Part shown: positions 22,462-59,869 of the stretch, in pieces | Numbering within the stretch: the first letter of the stretch is position 1 | How the letters are laid out: every line of letters starts with the position of its first letter | Assembly (NCBI GenBank): GCA_019426215.1 | Contig: CM033393.1 | Coordinates: 29,514,591 to 29,578,590 of the forward strand | Length of the DNA: 64,000 nt | From: Buddleja alternifolia | Lineage: Eukaryota; Streptophyta; Magnoliopsida; Lamiales; Scrophulariaceae | Direction: 5' to 3' | Position numbers and translations under genes: made by a program | Notes under the pieces: model-generated | Told to the model about the DNA's origin: nothing | Database searches by the model: none | What the model saw: only the letters and a program-made list of their open reading frames with translations

Positions 22462-22768
22462 CACTACTACAAAAATACACTAATACAGCGCACTTATTAC
22501 AGCGGTTCTGGTAAAACCGTTGAATGGAGGTACCTATTACAACGGTTCTAAAGAGAACCGCTGTAATAGGCCAAAACAAAAAAATTTAAAATCCTTTGAT
22601 CTTCCCGCTTCTTTCTCTCACTCTCAAAACTTAAAACCCATTTCAGCCTCTCTCTCGACCCTCCCCCCAAAAAGCTCGGCACCACCACCGCCGCTGCCAC
22701 CACCACCACATACCCGCGCCTCCTCCACCACCACCACGACCGTAAGCTTCTTCTCTTTCTCTCTCTCT

Positions 22769-23066
22769 CTCTATATATGTATATTTGTATATGTGTGGGT
22801 GTATGTATATTTGTGTATGTGTGGGTGTATGTATATTTTTGTATATGTGGGTGTATGTATATTTGTGTATGTGTGGGTGTATGTATATTTGTGTATCTGT
22901 GGGTGTATGTATATTTTTGTATATGTGGGTGTATTTATGTATATTTGTGTATGTGTAGATGGTTGTATGTATATTTGTGTATATGTGGTTATATGTATAT
23001 TTGTGTATATGTGGGTGTATGTATATTTGTGTATGTGTGGTGTATGTATATTTGTGTATGTGTGGG
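22769..23066. repeat. Minisatellite, ~26-bp unit of the form (TGTGTATGTGTGGGTGTATGTATATT)n
   Basis: About eleven imperfect units lie here, and about two more lie at 32644-32695 beyond Copia-A. All six frames are largely free of stops because the unit is built from TGTA/TGTG, which explains the long but meaningless Val/Tyr/Cys and Thr/His/Ile reading frames. Confidence 0.92.
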
Positions 23067-25208
23067 TGTTGGGTTGACTCATTCCCTCGGGTGGCTCGTG
23101 GCAGCGGAATTAAAATTTCATAAAAGGTAAATGTACAACCACCCAAAAACAGGAATATGGAATTGGTTCGATCAAATTTGATAAGGAGGTAAACAAAATT
23201 ATACCTTTCGAAAATTTCGTTTCACCTCGTACTTTGGATCTCAGCAACCCTGTGGTGCAAATCCACACAATTTCCCTTGGGTGAGAAATTGCCCGTCGTC
23301 TTTTTGTATCTCCCGGTTTAGAGTGCTCCAAGTGTCGCACCTCTAAGGTGTATCCACATCTCGTTCAAGTCACCAATTGTCTTGCCTTGCGTGCTAGACA
23401 ACAAAACGATTCTAAACTTAATTTAGGCTTGATTATGTGAATGGTAGGAATATTTTCTAAGTCGTTTAATTCAACACATGAATAGAACGACGTCTTGTTG
23501 GAAAGGGAGAGAGTGGTGGCCGATTTTTAGATCTAGGGAAGGGGGCGGATTTTCCAGCAATTATTCATTCTTATTTAGTTTTCTTCATCTCTTATTTATA
23601 AGTGAAGATTACCTAGAGTCCTATTAGGAAAAGGAAACTTCCTTTCTCTCAAACTCTCTAGTAATCCTTATCCTATGAAAACTTGGAGGACGGGAAAACT
23701 CTTTTCCTCCTCCACCACATAAAAAACCGCCCCCTCCCTTATTTTATCATAAAAATCGGTCAACACAAGTCAATTGGATTCTAGGATTAAATTTTGTCTT
23801 CTCAATTTACTTATAGGTTCAACCTATCAATTAAATACAAGTCAAATTAAATTCAACCAACTAATTCCAACATTTATTTATTTAACATGGGCTCTACCCA
23901 ATTAAATAAAATACTTGGACTCTACTAGGTCCATTAATTTAATTAATTCTACAAGATTAATTAAAAGATTAAAATTAATTGAATCCTTCAATTAATTTAT
24001 ATTCCATATTAGGAAAGTACTACACTTTCCTAATTCCCTCAATTTTCTCGAAATTGATTAATCACATCTATTCAAGCAGTGACTCTCTCAAGTTAGTGTG
24101 TGACCCCTTAGGCTCGTTTCTATCTAGTAGTAAGTACACCTTCCCATAGTGCTAGTGTACTTTCCTAAAATGGAAAATACTAGATTAAATCAATCATTTG
24201 ATTTAATCAAGCCTCGAATCAGTCACCAAGCTAATTCTCGGCACTTACAAATCGCGGTTGCCCACCTAGCATAGGGTCCCGAAGACCTAGATAAAACAAA
24301 AAGTAAAGATACGCCTTTTGCGATCTTGATCCTCGCATAAGTAAGATCCCTCTATCTAATCTCCCGATTGAATCTAGAGCAGTGGCTAAGGTCGAAGCTC
24401 TATTAATTCAATACTATGTTTCCCACATTATGTGAAATCGACTTCGACTATCTAAACGAGGAAACCCTACGCCTCTTTAGATATCATACTTCGGCCAAAG
24501 ATTCCTTAAGTCGATTCACTATGTAACCATAGGAGATTAACCAACTGGCTAATGTCAGAGATAGATTCTTCTCGATTCTCATGTGCCTTACTACGTAAGA
24601 CGTGTATGTCTGAGTTCGCCCATATTCGATCATCTAAAGTGATCATGTAACAAATCAAGAACATGCGCGGTTACGCATAAGACATCCAATGGAATCTTAG
24701 GTCCATAAGGATTACTCTTATACCACAAGACCACTGGAAGTTCCACATTCGACTGGGAATCCATTTTAGGAACTTCCATGGGGTTGTTCAGTTCGCCCAT
24801 TACCACAATGGCAACCCTTATATATGCATTGGATTTCACCGTGCCAGTATCTATGGAATGAGATACACTTCTCCCAGAGTATGCATCATATGAGCAAGTC
24901 TTTTGGGTTGCATCGATATCCCTTTATCTCGATGAACCCTTTCACGATTTGGAACAATGTTTAAAGATCACAACCTTCGAGACATATTCCATCATTGCCA
25001 CACCCAATGTGTAATAATGTCCTATAACTATGTGTGATCCTTCGGGACTTTATTCTAAGCCAAAGTAAAAACTAATTTAAAGATAAAGACATGCCACACA
25101 TATAAAAAGAGATTGAATTTATTTATAAGAAAACGATTGTTCAACTTTAGGGTTACTATTACAAAGAATGGAGCCCAATAATTGGTGCGCCGAGCACTAA
25201 CTCTAACA
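23067..25208 (-). repeat. Copia-A 3' LTR (left in the window)
   Basis: 2142 bp, TG...CA (TGTTGGGTTGACTCA to CTCTAACA on the plus strand). It keeps the ~190 bp that the other LTR has lost. Confidence 0.92.
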
Positions 25209-27135: not shown

Positions 27136-28233
27136 CTATTCAACAAATAGACAGCCCGTTTTAAGAGCATAGTCCCACATGGACTTAGGAATTTTAGTGA
27201 AACTCATCATGGATCGAACCATATCTAGTAATGTTTGATTCCTACGCTCGGCTACCCCGTTATGTTGAGGTGTGCCGGGCGGTGTCCATTGTGAGAGAAT
27301 TCCATTCTCTCTAAGATAATCAAGAAACTCGGTGGACAAGTATTCTCCTCCTCGATCCGATCGAAGAGCCTTAATACTTCTACCAAGTTGTTTCTCTACT
27401 TCATTTCTGAACTCCTTAAACTTCTCAAAGGATTCAGATTTATATCTCATAAGATATAAGTAACTATACTGTGAATAATCATCGGTAAAAGTTATGAAGT
27501 AGTTTTGGCCACCATGAGTGCTCATACTCATTGGCCCGCACATGTCCGTATAGACCAAGTCCAATGGTTTTGTTGCTCGTTCCGCTTTCCCCGAAAATGG
27601 TAACTTGGTCATTTTTCCTTTTAGACATGATTCGCAACTTGACAATTCATCTAAGTCATTGATATCTAAATGTCTTGCCAATGTTCGAACTCTTTCTTTG
27701 GAAATATGTCCAAGTCTCTCGTGCCACATTTGTGCATTTACTTGATTATCTTGTTTACGTTTGTCACTTTGTTGAATATTGAGATTGGAAATTATTGGGG
27801 ATATAGTATACATTCCATCCTTCATTTTCGATTCCATAATAAGAGACGATTCATAAAACAAAAGTAAACTTTTATTACGAATCTCAGAACAATATCCTTC
27901 TCTATCCAAAACCAGAATCGAGATAATATTTCTTATTATTTCAGGAACAAAATAAACGGAATGTAAAACTAAACTCCTATCTCCTAACTCTAAGTAGATC
28001 GTCCCCACGGCTTTGGCAGCAACCAATGCTCCATTCCCCATCCGCAGGGTCATATCTCCTCTACTTAGCTCCTTGGTTCTTTTCATCACCTGCAAATCAT
28101 TGCAAATATGAACACCGCATCTAGTGTCAAAAACCCAAGAAGAATCGTTAACAGTGAAGTTAACTTCAACAAAGAACATACCTTGAGCCAGAGGCTCTTT
28201 GTAGTTCCTTTGCCAGTGCCAACTTTCCCACAT
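27136..28233 (-). pseudogene. Copia-A protease-integrase region
   Basis: The 365-codon frame holds the aspartic protease phrase WVFDTRCGVHIC, where the D-T-G triad has Gly replaced by Arg. Next come the integrase zinc-binding region (WHERLGHISKER...CESCLKGKM) and the core with Asp in YTDMCGP, Asp in LRSDRGGEY and Glu in HNGVAERRN. It ends at a frameshift at about 27140; the 'YLLNRSPSK' phrase continues in the next frame. The mutated protease would prevent self-processing. Confidence 0.88.
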
Positions 28234-28973
28234 TTATGGCACTTATCAGACTTCTCAGACTTTGGCTTCTTTCCATTCTTCACACCACCATTACCTTTTA
28301 GCTTCTTAGTCTTATTCTTCTTCTTGTTGCCCTTCTTAGCCTTTGAAGAGGAATTCATAAGAAGCACCGGTTTATCCTTCTTGATGGTGCTTTCAGTAGT
28401 CTTCAACATGTTCAACAGCTCAGGAAGCTTTGCTTCAAGTTGGTTCATGTTGAAATTGACCACAAATTGATCATAAGAGTTAGGCAATGACTGTAGGACC
28501 AAATCCACAGAAAGCTCATTGTCAAGTGCCACGCCTAGACCAGCCAATTTTTTAATTAGCCCGATCATTTTAAGTACGTGCGCACTTACATCAGAGTTTT
28601 CAGTCATTCGAGCTTTGAAGAGCTCCTTGGAGATAGCATATCTTTCTCGCCTAGTTCTAGTTCCATACAGCTCTTGCAAATGAAGGAGGATCGACGCAGC
28701 ATTCTCAATCGTCTCATGTTGTCTCTGCCTCTCGTTACTCATAGAGGCCAACATGAGACATCGCACTTGCATGTCATCTTTCTTCCATTGCTGGTACTGG
28801 AACTTTTCATCATCAGATGAATCCTCTTCTGGCTCATCTTGCACCGGTATGTCAAACATATATTGTCTTCTTTCAGACGAAAGGATAATCTTAAGGTTAC
28901 GAAGCCAATCTTCAAAGTTTGGTCCAGTCAGTTTGTTGGTTTCAATTAGGGTTTTGAAAGGATTGTTGGCCAT
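28086..28973 (-). pseudogene. Copia-A gag
   Basis: The frame starts MANNPFKTLIETNKLTGPNF with the plant copia gag signature (WLRNLKIIL, then ELFKARMTENSDVSAHVLKM, LQSLPNSYDQF). A Lys-rich stretch is followed by a CCHC zinc knuckle that is interrupted: CHKCGKVG continues in the next frame as HWQRNY, with the last Cys changed to Tyr. Gag and the next frame overlap because of this single shift near 28225. Confidence 0.88.
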
Positions 28974-29153
28974 TTTCGTTTATCTACAAAAATGCATAAC
29001 AGACAATTAATAACGAATTTTCAAATAAAGTCCTTATACAATTTGGTCTTTAATTGTACAAGTCTCCCACTATTTTTATCAAATCACACCACCCTCTTGA
29101 CATGATTCGAAGAAACGTTAGTTTCTTTCGTGGGCTTGAGATCTATTCTCACT

Positions 29154-29471
29154 TCATCATATGCCCCATTTTTCTGAGCTAACATACGATGATTTTGAAT
29201 AGTAGCCTTACCAGACCTTCTATCTTTATAGATAGTTCTCAAGATGGTTTTCCTCATCTCCCACATGTGCCCCATTTTCTGAGCTAACACATGAGGGACG
29301 ATGTTAGGCTCAACCCATCAAATATCTCATGTATAACCATCAATTCCATTGCCCCCATTTTCTGAGCAAAGCAATGAAACCAACCGATTTCCATGGGGCA
29401 CCGTAGTGCTTAGTAAACACTCACAGCCTACCTCGGATCCAATCCACCCCATTTTCTAAGCAAAAGGATTG
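29154..29471 (-). other. Copia-A leader: four hairpins with one conserved loop and different stems
   Basis: Four copies of the core CCCCATTTTCTGAGC (plus-strand reading; one has TAAGC) stand at about 29165, 29270, 29353 and 29447. Each is enclosed by its own inverted repeat: TCATCATATG/CATACGATGA, CATGTG/CACATG, CATTGC/GCAATG and CAATCC/GGATTG. Loops match while stems differ but pair. In the RNA (minus sense) the one mismatch in the first stem becomes a G-U pair. The cluster lies 180-500 nt upstream of the gag ATG. Confidence 0.85.
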
Positions 29472-30190
29472 AACCTTTTGCGGCGTTTCACATGGTGAAT
29501 ACTTATGATGGAAGGTATGATAATAGAATTCCATTCATATTATCACATAAGCCTAATATTTTCGCAGGAGGAAATTAAAACATGCTTATTGGGGGGTCTC
29601 ATCAGATTTAATTATCTTGTTTTAATTATCTATCCTATGCATGCATTACATCACATAATCATCATAGACAGATAAATAAAACATCCACAAAGCTGTAAAA
29701 ATGAGGATGAACCCACTCGAGCCAAAGTGGGTTTGGACATTCTAGAAAATAAAAAACTAGCCTAGACTATTACAATGGTATCGTCTCAGCATACAAGTCT
29801 TCAAGTCTTGGCTCCGTCTCTTTGCTCCGTCTTCGATTACATAGAATACCAAAAACTACTAATCTACTATACGGAAAAGTAAAGAGCCAAACCGGCTATT
29901 ATTTACAACTCTAGAATAATTACATACATAAAAAACCAACACTACGACTAGGCTCGTGGTTCATCCTTTTATCACAGAAACATGCCAAGCAACAAACATA
30001 CATGTGATAAAGAAAATTTTACCCATTCATCATTCAAACTAGATTGCAAATATTATTGGGATAAGTTCGATATTGATTTCTAAAACCTTTCTCAGAGTTT
30101 ACAAGTCTAAAACATCATAGGCAAGATCTTTGGGTCACCCACCTCCAGAAAGCAAGAAGAAAGGAATTTTTTTTTCTTTAACTTTCTGTT

Positions 30191-30297
30191 GACCACGCCT
30201 AGGCGTGGCCTGACCCTAGCCTGGGCGTGGTCATACGCGCTCCTGGGCGTGAGTTACCCCACGTCTGGGCGCCGCGTGCAGCGGCTGTTGCTATTTG
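30191..30297 (-). other. Copia-A leader: GC-rich palindromic block
   Basis: GACCACGCCTAGG (30191-30203) faces CCTGGGCGTGGTC (30220-30232), pairing at 12 of 13 positions. Further 'cctgggcgtg' and 'gtctgggcgccgcg' repeats follow. It stands out sharply from the AT-rich leader around it. Confidence 0.8.
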
Positions 30298-30676
30298 CGA
30301 TTTTCAAATCAGGTTTTCGCACGTTCGTGATTCTTTCGAGTTTCTATTAACAAATCTGAATTCTTCTAAGGTCTGAGTTTTATTACTTGATGATTAAACC
30401 TTCGGTTCAACCATCTCGCAATACCCCACCAAAGGTGATTTCATAAAACTAGATCAAAACCTTCGAAAACAATCATATACCCAAATTTCAGATTTCATGA
30501 TTTTTAAAACCAATGACTTTTAAACATTAAAATTATAAAAAATCAAACAACATCCCAAATCAAAATCAATCCTAGTCTAACAATGAACATATTGATTATC
30601 ATGCTTTCGATTTTACAATTAAAACGTAAAAACAAACATGCATAATCACATAAAAATTCGATCGAGCCAAACCATG

Positions 30677-30688
30677 GCTCTGATACCA
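30677..30688 (-). other. Copia-A primer binding site (initiator tRNA-Met)
   Basis: Read on the minus strand, TGGTATCAGAGC lies one base inside the 5' LTR. This is the standard primer site complementary to the 3' end of plant initiator tRNA-Met. Confidence 0.93.
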
Positions 30689-30689
30689 C

Positions 30690-32643
30690 TGTTGGGTTGA
30701 CTCATTCCCTTGGGTGAGAAATTGCCTGTCGTCTTTCCGTATCTCCCAGTTTAGAGTGCTCCAAGCGTCGCACTTCTAAGATGTATCCACACCTCATTCA
30801 AGTCACCAATCGTCTTGCCTTGCGTGCCAGACAACAAAACGATTCTAAGCTTAACTTAGGCTTGATTATGTGAATGGTAGGAATATTTTCTAAGTCGTTT
30901 AATTCAACACATGAATAGAACGACGTCTTGTTAGAAAGGGAGAGAGTGGTGGCTGATGTTTAGATCTTGGGAAGGGGGGCGGATTTTCCGACAATTATTC
31001 ATTCTTATTTAGTCTTCTTCATCTCTTATTTATAGGTGAAAATTACCTAGAGTCCTATTAGGAAAAGGAAACTTCCTTTCTCCCAAACTCTCTAGTAATC
31101 CTTATCCTATGAAGACTTGGAGGAGGGAAAAACTCTTTTCCTCCTCCACCACATAAAAAACCGCCCCTCCCTTATTTTTTCTCATAAAAATCGGTCAACA
31201 CATGTCAATTGGATTCTAGGATTTAATTTTGACTTCTCAATTTACTTATAGGTTCAACCCATCAATTAAATACAAGTCAAATTAAATCCAACCAACTAAT
31301 TCCAATATTTATTTATTTAACTTGGGCTCTACCCAATTAAATAAAATACTTGGACTCTACTAGGTCCATTAATTTAATTAATTCTACAAGATTAATTAAA
31401 AGAGTAAAATTAATTGAATCCTTCAATTAATTTATATTCCATATTAGGAAAGTACTACACTTTCCTAATTCCCTCAATTTCCTCGAAATTGATTAATCAC
31501 ATCTATTCAAGCAGTGACTCTCTCGAGTTAGTGTGTGACCCCTTAGACTCGTTTCTATCTAGTAGTAAGTACACCTTCCCATAGTGCTAGTGTACTTTCC
31601 TAAAATGGAAAGTACTAGATTAAATCAATCCTTTGATTTAATCAAGCCTCGAATCAGTCATCAAGCTAATTCTCGGCACTTACAAATCGCGGTTGCCTAC
31701 CTAGCATAGGGTCCCGAAGATCTAGATAAAATGAAAAGTAAAGATACGCCTTTTGCGATCTTGATCCTCGTATAAGTAAGATCCCTCTATCTAATCTCCC
31801 GATTGAATCTAGAGCAGTGGCTAAGGTCGAAGCTCTATTAATTCAATACTATGTTTCCCACGTTATGTGAAATTGACTTCGACTATCTAAACGAGGAAAC
31901 CCTACGCCTCTTTAGATATCATACTTCGGCCGAGGATTCCTTAAGTCGATTCACTATGTAACCATAGGAGATTAACTAACTGGCTAATGTCAGAGATAGA
32001 TTCCTCTCGATTCTCACGTGCCTTACTACGTAAGACGTGCATGTCTGAGTTTGCCCATATTAGATCATCTAAAGTGATCATGTAACAAATCAAGAACATG
32101 CACGGTTATGCATAAGACATCCAATGGAATCTTAGGTCCATAAGGATTACTCTTATACCACAAGACCATTGGAAGTTCCACATTCGACTGAGAATCCATT
32201 TTAGGAACTTCCATGGGGTTGTTTAGTTCGCCCATTACCACAATGGAAACCCTCATATATGCATTGGCTTTCACCGTCCCAGTATCTATGGAACGAGATA
32301 CACTTCTCCCAAAGTATGCATCATACGAGCAAGTCTTTTGGGTTGCATCGATATCCCTTTATCTCGATGAACCCTTTCACGACTTGGAACAATGTTTAAA
32401 GATCACAGCCTTCGAGACATATTCCATCATTGCCACACCCAATGTGCAATGATGTCCCATAGCTATGTGTGATCCTTCGGGACTTTATTCTAAGCCAAAG
32501 TAAAAACTAACTTAAGAATAAAGACATGCCACACATATAAAAAGAGATTGACTTTATTTATAAGAAAACGATTGTTCAACTCTAGGGTTACTATTACAAA
32601 GAATGGCGCCCAATAATTGGTGCGCCGGGCACTAACTCTAACA
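30690..32643 (-). repeat. Copia-A 5' LTR (right in the window), with internal deletion
   Basis: 1954 bp. It matches 23067-25208 except for a ~190-bp deletion just inside its left edge. In the intact LTR the missing piece is bounded by 'ttccctcgggtg' and 'ttcccttgggtg', so it was probably lost by recombination between these short direct repeats. Confidence 0.9.
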
Positions 32644-32862
32644 GTGGGTGTATGTGTATATGTGTATGTGTGGGTGTATGTATATTTGTGTATTTACGAA
32701 AATATTTCTTGTTTGAAATTTTGCTGTGTCGGAATGACACGAAATTCGCACGGTTATAGCGAAATGGCGTATTGAACAAGACGCATAGCTATGCAATGCG
32801 GTCTTGTCATTTTAGCCATCTAAGATCGTGAAAGGCCTCAAATTTGCGTTTTGTTACGAAAA

Positions 32863-54257: not shown

Positions 54258-54458
54258 TAATGGATGGCAACCCTTTAACGATATTTGGTCCATTATTTTA
54301 ATTAAAGTGATGTCCAACATCAATCTATCCAATAGATGGTTCAATCTTCTTTTTCCCATAATCCACCAAAACCGCAACCCTTTAACGATTTATAGGCTTT
54401 GTGTAATCTAACATTTGAATTTCACCTTGCAACCCTTTAATGATATTTGGGGTGAAAT
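54258..54458 (-). other. D1 leader: hairpins with conserved loop GCAACCCTTTAACGAT
   Basis: Loop core GCAACCCTTTAA.GAT (plus reading) occurs three times. Hairpin 1 has stem TAATGGA/TCCATTA (54258-54295) and hairpin 3 has stem ATTTCACC/GGTGAAAT (54419-54458). Hairpin 2 (about 54358-54410) has lost its right stem arm by a small deletion; the complete version is in D2. The cluster lies 215-415 nt upstream of the gag ATG. Confidence 0.82.
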
Positions 54459-55494
54459 ATGTCTCGATTAAGGCATCTAATGCACTTAATAAAATTCTAG
54501 AATTAAATCTTGATATACGACCCACTTACTGGGAAGATGACATATACTAGGTTAAATACTTAATTTCATTGAGTTTAGTGGAGGGAAAGGATGCCTAGCA
54601 CCCCTTACTAACTTAGTATCAATTTTTGCTTGGGAGAATTCATGTTCTAAACATTTATCTAAGTCTCACTTTGCACATTATTCAATTTATATAGCGCATA
54701 TTGATAACATACATGCTTCATACAACTAATGAACATGCATCGAAAGCAATAAACCAACACATATGTCCACGGGCTTTATCTAGAGGGCCCAAGCCAATGG
54801 GCCATCATTAAAAAGAAAAATAAGCCTAGCTATTCTTCATGGACTCCAAGCTCCGCTTCTTTTGGATTGATCTCCTCTTGAAAGGCCTATTCTGTTTCTA
54901 TCTATTACACGAGATTATTTAACAACCTACACATAATTCTAGAAATAAAATAAACGGGCTCAATTTCGGCCCTTACAACCCATAAAAGGAAATACAATCA
55001 AAAGAAATAACCTAAGCCCATGGACATTGTCACCATCATATAATACATGCTCGCGAAAAATAAAGCAATTATATTGGTGATTAAGTTAATGAATAATTAG
55101 TCCAACTAATCAATTCCCTCAATAAAATTCCAGATTTTATTGATAATCATGACAATAACCATTTGGTGAGATTTTTTAATTTAAATAAATAACTTAATTA
55201 AAAAAAATTCTCCAAGAACCATTAATTAATTATTTCATTTAAATTAATAATACTCAATAAAAACAATTTGGGCTTTATTTCATAAAATATAATTACCAAC
55301 CATTGACATATTTAATTTTAATTAATTAGGCCCAAAACTAATTTATTGAAGAATCCATATTTTTAAATAAAACAATTTGGGCTTATTTAATTAAATTTGG
55401 GTCATCATCCTTTTGACCCACCAGGATAATTAAAATAGCCCAAAACCCATTTAAATAAAAAATTGGACCCGAGGAAAATTAACCCGACCCGTTA

Positions 55495-58363: not shown

Positions 58364-58596
58364 TTTTGTTTTAAGAGAGATAAATCTAAAATAGTTGTAG
58401 AAAATAAACCAGACTTTATTAGACATGTGTAACTAAACTAAAACCATGTTTAAAATCAAGGATTTCGACTTATAACTTGGCTCCCACTACATTGTTTGAG
58501 ATTCACACTCCCACTGTGAAAAACGGAAGTGATCGTTGCAATGTACTTCGTGGCGGGGATTGATTTCTTTAATTAATCTAATGGATGGCAACCCTT

Positions 58597-58806
58597 TAAC
58601 AATATTTTGTCCAGTATTTTAATTAAAGTGATGTCCAACATCAATCTATCCAATAGATGGTTCAATCTTCTTTTTCCCATAATCCACCAAAACCGCAACC
58701 TTTTAACGATTTATAGGCTTTGTGGATTATCTAAGTTTACTCCCACTAACTCCTCATAATCTAACATTTGAATTTTACCTTGCAACCCTTTAACGATATT
58801 TGGGTG
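58597..58806 (-). other. D2 leader: three hairpins with conserved loop
   Basis: The loops share GCAACC.TTTAAC.AT. Hairpin 2 is complete here: ATAATCCAC (58679-58687) pairs perfectly with GTGGATTAT (58722-58730). Hairpin 3 pairs ATTTTACC with GGTGAAAT with one mismatch. Hairpin 1 (TAATGGA/TCCAGTA) has one mismatch. Confidence 0.82.
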
Positions 58807-59869
58807 AAATATGTCTCGATTAAGGCATCTAATGCACTTAATAAAATTCTAGAATTAAATCTTGATATACGACCCCCACTTACTGGGAAGATGCTATATA
58901 CTAGGTTTAATACTTAATTTCATTATGTTTAGTGGAGGGAAAGAATGCCCAGCACCCCGTACTAACTTAGTATCAATTTTTGCTTGGGAGAATTCATGTT
59001 CTAAACATTTATCTAAGTCTCACTTTGCACATTATTCAATTTATATAGCGCCTATTGATAACATAAATGCTTCATACAAATAATGAACATGCATCGAACG
59101 CAATATATCTACACATATGTCCATGGGCTTTATCTAGATGGCCCAAGCCAATGTGCCATCATTAAAAGGAAAAATAAGCCTAGCTATTCTTCGTGGGCTC
59201 CAAGTTCCTCTTCTTTTGGATTAATCTCCTCTTGAAAGGCCTATTCTATTTCTATCTATTACATGAGATTATTTAACAACCTATACATAATTCTTGAAAT
59301 ATAATAAACGGGCTCATTACCAGCCCTTACAACCCATAAAAGGAAATACAAACAAAAGAAAAAACCTAAGCCCATGGACAATGTCACAATCATATAATAC
59401 ATGCTCGCGAAAAATAAAGCAATTATGTTGGTGATAAAGTTAATGAATAATTAGTCCAACTAATAAATTCCCTCAATAAAATTCCAAATTTTATTGATAA
59501 TCATGACAATAAACCATTTAGTGAGAATCTTTAATTTAAATAAATAACTTAATTTAAAATTCTCCAAGAACCATTAATTAATTATTTCTTAAATTAATAA
59601 TATTCAATAAAAACAATTTGGGCTTGATTTCATAAAATATAATTACCAACCATTGGCATATTTAATTTCAATTAATTAGGCCCAAAACTAATTTATTGAA
59701 GAGTCCATATTTTTAAATAAAATAATTTGGGTTTATTTAATTAAATCCGGGTCATCATCCTTTTGACCCACCCGGATAATTAAAATAGTCCGAAACCCAT
59801 TTATTTAAAAAATTGGACTCGAGGAAAAATAACCCGACCCGTTAGGACCTTGGTCATGGACCCGCGCCC

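What the first reader, a model, noticed from the sequence alone, without database searches (positions are those of the whole stretch)
29154..29471. Four leader hairpins with an invariant loop and different, still-paired stems in Copia-A
Seen: the 15-base core CCCCATTTTCTGAGC recurs four times between primer site and gag, and each copy is closed by a different inverted repeat of 6-10 bp. Tandem duplication alone would copy the stems too. Instead the stems differ and remain complementary, and the only mismatch in stem 1 is a G-U pair in the transcribed sense. The second stem extends further (CATC/GATG and CCC/GGG beyond it). That is the signature of selected RNA structure with a protein- or RNA-binding loop. 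Inference: a packaging, dimerisation or translation-control element of the retrotransposon. I know of no described element of this form, but I cannot search.
Basis: partly seen in the sequence, partly recalled or inferred. Interest (0 to 1): 0.8.

Follow-up and report, generated by a model that had tools for sequence, protein, structure and literature searches.

The report
Four-hairpin RNA array in Copia leaders
The untranslated leader of a very abundant plant jumping gene folds into four hairpins at fixed spacing whose tips are shared within a subfamily but replaced together between subfamilies, which looks like a subfamily-specific recognition tag, perhaps for packaging the element's own RNA.

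Summary
In the transcript (minus strand) each hairpin is a variable lower stem, a short 5' bulge, a CUCA/UGGG upper stem and a GAAAA loop. The core occurs 1722 times in the genome (reversed control 1). Two A1 branches, 17% apart outside the hairpins, share the apex exactly (0/59 sites against 46/266). Subfamilies A2 and A3, and Copia-B (leader not alignable to A), also carry four hairpins at nearly equal spacing (88-94, 82-87, 103-107 nt) with other apices, shared in groups (A2, A3: a=b, c=d or nearly; B: b=c=d). Between A1 and A3 the apex is the least conserved part. Sense folds beat antisense in 19 of 20 hairpins, and two-sided compensatory pairs exist. Covariation statistics are mixed: significant for A2-A3 (p = 0.002), not for A1 against A2 or A3. 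One copy gained a hairpin by a switch exactly at the shared apex. Best reading: a cis-acting RNA domain recognised by the element's own Gag. Gag binding is inferred, not shown. Eight searches of an open-licence paper library showed no description.

The parts
29154..29192 (-). hairpin d: 11-bp lower stem, UAG bulge, CUCA/UGGG upper stem, GAAAAA loop (apex 29164-29179)
29255..29303 (-). hairpin c with CATC/GATG and CCC/GGG extension (apex 29270-29284)
29339..29384 (-). hairpin b (apex 29353-29367); G-C to A-U compensatory pair in branch A1b
29436..29475 (-). hairpin a (apex 29447-29461), stem re-registered in branch A1b
29412..29503 (-). basal helix P1 enclosing hairpin a (arms 29495-29503 and 29412-29420); two A-U/G-C compensatory pairs between A2 and A3; imperfect in the window copy
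29398..29409 (-). small hairpin s1 between a and b: GCAC/GTGC in A1a, GCAT/ATGC in the A1b, A2 and A3 copies read
29220..29235 (-). small hairpin s2 between c and d: CTATCT/AGATAG in A1, CTATAT/ATATAG in A3, TTACAT/ATGTAA in A2 (single copies; broken in A1b copy L081)
28086..28973 (-). gag frame of Copia-A (PF14223); it departs from its relatives inside the zinc knuckle
30677..30688 (-). primer binding site TGGTATCAGAGC
30690..32643 (-). 5' LTR of Copia-A (main BLAST match to the 3' LTR 30705-32643, 95.6% identical; a 27-nt piece reaches 30690)
23272..25208 (-). 3' LTR of Copia-A (main matched part)
58588..58887 (-). array of Copia-B copy B2: hairpin a apex 58875-58887, b 58782-58797, c 58695-58710, d 58588-58603; gag ATG 58363
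54267..54533 (-). array of Copia-B copy B1: a apex 54521-54533, b 54429-54444, c 54374-54389, d 54267-54282 (b-c spacing shortened to 55); gag ATG 54042

Best explanation
The four hairpins are the recognition modules of one selected RNA domain in the genomic RNA of a Copia retrotransposon, between primer site and gag. Shown: four bulged hairpins at nearly fixed spacing, structure on the sense strand, an apex kept unchanged between branches of a subfamily, and different shared apices at the same places in other subfamilies. Inferred: the lower stems only present the apices, so they drift with compensation. The apices are docking sites for one trans-acting partner, most likely the element's own Gag (capsid plus basic zinc-knuckle C-terminus). 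Several spaced sites nucleate Gag on the RNA and mark it for packaging into virus-like particles. When Gag changes, the apices change together, helped by reverse-transcriptase jumps between identical apices.
For: Core count 1722 against 1 control. Apex 0/59 branch differences against 19/100 in arms and 46/266 elsewhere, while individual A1a copies deviate at 49/2405, 93/4079 and 347/10819 (Fisher p = 4.7e-5). Same four positions with other shared apices in A2, A3 and Copia-B (B apex 2880 copies, control 0). Apex identity A1b-A3 23/68, below arms 59/112 and spacers 138/199. Structure folded from one A3 copy, read in one A2 copy: 39 of 59 changed pairs still standard, shuffle mean 27.1, p = 0.002; 21 of 30 two-sided changes kept. 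Sense z below antisense z in 19 of 20 hairpins. Two-sided compensatory pairs in P1, s1, s2, HPb, HPc, HPd and both upper-stem types (hand-picked helices). The four Gags read (one each of A1a, A1b, A2, A3) have a basic C-terminus and at least the start of a CCHC knuckle. L057: fifth hairpin made of hairpin d 5' arm and apex joined to hairpin c 3' arm.
Against: No binding, packaging or probing data. The array is about 1.2 kb from the primer site, farther than the retroviral signals I recall. A1 against A2 or A3 shows no excess of retained pairs over shuffles (A3 to A1b 29/71, p = 0.69; A3 to A1a 35/70, p = 0.09; A2 to A1b 33/84, p = 0.57). Inside subfamilies two-sided changes are rare: 1 of 29 variable pairs in 13 A2 copies, 0 of 9 in 11 A3 copies. 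Stability kept from A1a to A1b is not significant (p = 0.087), and hairpin c is weak in A1b (p = 0.92). Weak hairpins against shuffled arms: A1b c p = 0.17, A2 c 0.054, A3 c 0.064, B1 0.08-0.14, B2 0.75, 0.03, 0.63. In comparisons with A2 the apex is about as diverged as the arms, not more (A1a-A2 31/64 against 49/109; A2-A3 36/68 against 51/109). Gag divergence is not concentrated in the nucleocapsid part (A2-A3 64% and 65%).
Confidence: 0.5

Rival explanations
1. Nuclear export or stability element: the repeated bulged hairpins bind a host RNA-export or RNA-binding protein so that unspliced genomic RNA leaves the nucleus or escapes decay.
For: Repeated identical bulged modules in a long leader fit a host-protein docking array; the structural evidence fits equally.
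Against: A host partner should be shared by subfamilies in one plant, yet apices differ between A1, A2, A3 and B in the same genome.
Confidence: 0.18
2. Translation control: the array acts as an internal ribosome entry or ribosome-shunting structure past the many upstream AUGs.
For: 57 AUGs upstream of gag in the window copy; each of its four apices holds AUG in AAAAUGG, a strong context.
Against: No AUG in A2 or B apices or in A3 c/d apices; the frames after the four apical AUGs differ (41, 24, 63 and 6 codons); spacings 83, 94, 105 keep no frame.
Confidence: 0.15
3. Dimerisation by loop-loop kissing between two genomic RNAs.
For: MLV SL-C and SL-D share a GACG loop and contact each other (passages of PMC5874298); the B b-d loop holds UUAA and the A2 a/b tip UUGCAA, both self-complementary.
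Against: A1 GAAAA, A3 UGUUCU and AGU, and B-a GUAAG loops are not self-complementary, and the two apex types of A2 or A3 do not obviously pair with each other (read by eye).
Confidence: 0.1
4. No selected RNA structure: the arrays are old duplications, the stems chance or relics, and spacing is kept by descent.
For: A1, A2 and A3 leaders are homologous, so equal spacing among them is expected; the 105-nt unit did duplicate once (L057); pair retention in A1 comparisons is not above shuffles.
Against: Apex frozen between branches but different between subfamilies, stems rebuilt with different pairs, sense-strand bias 19 of 20, same layout in Copia-B without detectable leader similarity.
Confidence: 0.06

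Closest known systems
GACG hairpin pair (SL-C, SL-D) in the 5' leader of murine leukaemia virus and relatives
   Same: neighbouring 5'-leader hairpins with an identical loop, said to contact each other in the RNA dimer (passages of PMC5874298); its role in packaging and its position before gag are recalled
   Different: two hairpins with a tetraloop against four bulged hairpins at 80-107 nt spacing; a plant Copia element, not a retrovirus; apex differs between subfamilies of one genome
Dimerisation and packaging signals of the barley BARE elements (superfamily Copia)
   Same: plant Copia element; signals said to be conserved in BARE2, which is packaged by BARE1 particles (passages of PMC3735527)
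   Different: the passages I read give no sequence, structure or place, so identity with this array could not be tested
Short degenerate packaging signals of satellite tobacco necrosis virus 1
   Same: several short sites proposed as packaging signals (title and abstract start in the listing of PMC6475782); that they recruit capsid protein is recalled
   Different: there degenerate; here near-identical apices in a 300-nt leader array of a retroelement; not compared in detail
Purine loop bound by Gag in mouse mammary tumour virus genomic RNA
   Same: a loop critical, with the primer site, for selective packaging (title and abstract start in the listing of PMC8096270)
   Different: named as one loop there; here repeated, and not all apices are purine-rich

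Membership tests
Retroviral GACG hairpin-pair motif | GACG tetraloop on neighbouring hairpins | tested here: not met
   apical loops read are GAAAA, UAAAAU, UGUUCU, GCA, AGU, GUAAG and GUUAAAG
Retroviral GACG hairpin-pair motif | repeated hairpins with shared loop and different stems in the leader | tested here: met
Retroviral GACG hairpin-pair motif | Gag binding, packaging or dimer function | not testable with these tools
   needs experiment
Any curated RNA family (Rfam 15) | covariance-model match | tested here: not met
   0 matches: window 28900-30700 at E up to 1; L123, L135, L161, L125 at E up to 0.1
BARE-type packaging/dimerisation signals | same sequence or structure | not tested
   no BARE sequence was fetched; paper passages give none
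Copia-type LTR retrotransposon (host element) | copia gag and pol domains, LTRs, primer site | tested here: met
   PF14223, PF00665, PF13976, PF07727; LTRs 95.6% identical; TGGTATCAGAGC
Simple tandem repeat array | head-to-tail copies of one unit | tested here: not met
   none at the hairpins in the window; repeat family of 29 nt at spacing 105, 83, 94; exception L057
Start-codon or frame-based translation element | conserved apical AUG or frame | tested here: not met
   AUG in A1 and A3 a/b apices only; absent in A2, B and A3 c/d
Internal ribosome entry site | cap-independent translation | not testable with these tools
   needs experiment

The most novel reading that the evidence does not exclude
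Plant Copia elements carry a subfamily-specific RNA password: four evenly spaced bulged hairpins whose tips are rewritten together, through reverse-transcriptase switching between identical tips, as Gag specificity changes, so that related elements sharing one nucleus package their own RNA and exclude others.
Probability: 0.33. Interest if true: 0.87.

Novelty: new variant of a known kind. Interest (0 to 1): 0.72.

Why it matters
[quoted passage not shown] Here is a precise candidate signal with a built-in test: four lineages in one genome share the scaffold but differ in apex, so Gag-apex specificity can be measured pairwise. If true, it would give a molecular basis for the independence or parasitism of element families and a structural marker for Copia leaders.

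Tried and rejected
Rejected: chance (genome count). Viral collection: 42 loci with an exact core, about what chance would give by my rough estimate, not computed; one (L013) has two cores within 2 substitutions and was not followed up. No relative of the integrase frame in viral contigs. Coding repeat: spacing is not a multiple of three and the apices differ between subfamilies; the small frames were not searched against protein databases. DNA-level palindrome: sense-strand bias. Loop kissing: not general.

Weak or negative results: the stem-length count used too small an offset and missed the stem of hairpin a; its GU-allowed chance rates are not small. RNAalifold on A1 gave 5 two-sided and 12 one-sided majority changes in 87 pairs, none broken, but those pairs were chosen on the same alignment, so I do not count it. 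One search is a hand-made table of helices: it shows that the pairs exist, not their significance. It uses one copy per lineage, and for A1b the copy was chosen helix by helix (L081 has broken pairs in s2 and hairpin d, L069 in P1); hairpins whose arms could not be lined up between subfamilies (a; b in A2 and A3; c in A2) are left out. Its P1 lines are numbered from the wrong end; the arms printed there give the two P1 pairs. The apex identities rest on a sequence alignment that may slip at the apices.

Dropped rows: of 90 loci 78 matched the A1 segment and 58 were distinct; two near-duplicates and L093 (the window itself) were removed, then L057 and L105. Many A1 loci were found through the exact core, so core presence per site (a 50, b 54, c 53, d 50 of 54) is biased upward. 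Of 15 A2 leaders fetched, 11 show all four apices within 2 edits, L139 and L147 three, L140 and L141 were not scored. Of 12 A3 leaders the c=d repeat is in 12 and a=b in 11; folds were printed for 3. In Copia-B the pattern matcher found three apices in 10 and two in 12 of 22 leaders; the alignment shows the remaining ones altered. B hairpin a: 8 of 10 fetched copies at 92.5 nt, two deviating.

Full report
What the window shows. Copia-A lies on the minus strand: 5' LTR about 30.69-32.64 kb, primer site 30677-30688, gag start 28973, 3' LTR 23272-25208 (main matched part); LTRs 95.6% identical. The four cores sit 180-500 nt upstream of gag in a 1.7-kb leader. In the transcript each is a bulged hairpin: variable lower stem, 3-nt bulge UAG or UUG on the 5' side, upper stem CUCA/UGGG, loop GAAAA(A). 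Hairpin a is looser and has a competing fold.

Genome-wide copies. The window belongs to an 853.6-Mb assembly. The core occurs 811 + 911 times; the same letters reversed occur once. A gag search gave 17769 first-look candidates, of which 150 were scored, 82-100% identical. After removing duplicates 56 leaders (window included) align; two more were dropped, leaving 41 of branch A1a and 13 of branch A1b. By majority base the branches differ at 46/266 sites outside the hairpins and 19/100 in the arms, but at 0/59 in the four apices (Fisher p = 4.7e-5). Individual A1a copies deviate at 2.0% in the apices, 2.3% in arms and 3.2% elsewhere; in the apex C4>T (8) and G6>A (7), the two changes of a CAG site, lead. 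So single insertions decay at the apex nearly as fast as nearby, and the apex is best explained as kept by selection on the replicating lineage.

Stems inside A1. From the window copy, 51 lower-stem pairs: 13 changed in A1b, 7 still standard, 5 two-sided, 2 of them compensated (hairpin b G-C to A-U; hairpin c C-G to U-A); hairpin a re-registers. Against simulated drift A1a hairpins are more stable than expected from A1b (combined p = 5.8e-5), but not the reverse (p = 0.087), hairpin c being weak in A1b. Taken alone this is moderate evidence.

Other subfamilies. A search with a Rehmannia gag found subfamily A2, many copies with 1303-residue frames without stops; one with a Theobroma gag also found A3. 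In 7 of 8 A2 leaders no A1 core is found within 3 edits, in the eighth one 3-edit hit outside the array. A2: a and b share GACCAUUGCAAGUGG, c and d share CAUAAAAUUG(A/G)GG. A3: a and b share GUCCAUGAGUCGUGGGG, c and d share GGGCUCGUGUUCUCGGGG. Both have four hairpins at the places of the A1 ones. Upper stems covary: CUCA/UGGG (A1), CUCG/CGGG (A3 c, d); CCAUU/AGUGG (A2 a, b), CCAUG/CGUGG (A3 a, b). Extra helices are shared: P1 around hairpin a, s1 between a and b, s2 between c and d; in the copies tabulated s2 reads CTATCT/AGATAG, CTATAT/ATATAG and TTACAT/ATGTAA, so three of its six pairs changed on both sides.

Covariation tests. Folding one A3 copy alone and reading its local pairs in one A2 copy: 82/102 standard against a mean of 0.42 when slid; 39 of 59 changed pairs kept, shuffle mean 27.1, p = 0.002. 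The same shuffle test gives A3 to A1a p = 0.09, A3 to A1b p = 0.69 and A2 to A1b p = 0.57, perhaps because bulge sizes differ and the alignment slips there. Inside subfamilies two-sided changes are rare: 1 of 29 variable pairs in 13 A2 copies, 0 of 9 in 11 A3 copies.

The turnover pattern. A1a against A1b: apex 60/60 identical, arms 82/112, spacer 191/233. A1b against A3: apex 23/68, arms 59/112, spacer 138/199. In comparisons with A2 the apex is near the arms (A1a 31/64 and 49/109, spacer 118/199; A3 36/68 and 51/109, spacer 124/199). So the part frozen inside A1 is the part most changed towards A3, at several hairpins together. That is the main reason to propose a co-evolving partner.

Copia-B. 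The other Copia family in the window has a leader with no significant BLAST match to four A leaders (best E 0.65), yet three hairpins share AUCGUUAAAGGGUUGC on different stems, and a fourth upstream has apex CCCAGUAAGUGGG on a 4-nt bulge. Centre spacings: A1a 94/83/105.5, A2 88/83/104, A3 90/81.5/103, B2 91.5/87/107; last apex centre to gag ATG 198, 209.5, 203 and 232 nt (from positions). The B apex occurs 2880 times, reversed control 0. Two-sided changes: L173 GTAGTGGA/TCCACTAC against L172 GTAATGGA/TCCATTAC, and the upper stem of L179. B hairpins b-d are individually weak in shuffle tests.

Strand. Sense z is below antisense z in 19 of 20 hairpins from six copies of five lineages (A1a, A1b, A2, A3, B); the exception is one B hairpin. 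This argues for RNA of the transcribed strand rather than a DNA palindrome.

How tips could change together. L057 has five hairpins; the extra one is hairpin d 5' arm and apex joined to hairpin c 3' arm, with 105 nt repeated. A template switch at the shared apex explains it, and such switches could spread one apex through the array. This is one copy.

Function. The four Gags read have a basic C-terminus and at least the start of a CCHC knuckle; capsid parts are 63-66% identical between A1, A2 and A3 and 80% between A1a and A1b (the window frame departs in the knuckle and the A3 frame read starts inside the capsid). Gag binding for packaging is the best fit because the apex is family-specific inside one nucleus, whereas a host export factor should be common. 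This step is inference.

Literature. The closest case I know is the MLV pair of hairpins with identical GACG loops (passages, PMC5874298). The BARE paper mentions packaging and dimerisation signals without structure in the passages read (PMC3735527). Listings of searches of open-licence papers showed no description of this array; most subscription papers are not in that library. Rfam has no match in the stretches tested.

Noticed in passing
L057, positions 1723-1932: Copy with five hairpins; the extra one is a chimera of hairpin d 5' arm and hairpin c 3' arm, 105 nt duplicated.
   Followed up: partly
window 29595-29656: A 62-nt block of the Copia-A leader, ending in the sense strand with GATGAGACC, matches 5 of 8 A2 leaders at 76-77% although most of the rest of the leader gives no match.
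   Followed up: no
window 29460-29481: In the window copy hairpin a competes with an 8-bp hairpin GCAAAAGG/CCTTTTGC that would free the apex.
   Followed up: no
window 23093-23272: The 3' LTR of Copia-A carries about 180 nt near its end that the 5' LTR lacks, between similar short repeats.
   Followed up: no
window 22725-23078 and 32644-32693: Copia-A is flanked on both sides by the same GTGTATGTGTGGGTGTATGT-like tandem repeat, so it seems to have inserted into a minisatellite.
   Followed up: partly
G000, e.g. C1:23522227-23522850 and C19:20423849-20424472: Subfamily A2 has many copies with the same gag score and 1303-residue frames without stops, which suggests recent activity.
   Followed up: no
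window 54389-54444: Copia-B copy B1 lacks 32 nt between hairpins b and c that the other aligned B copies have.
   Followed up: partly
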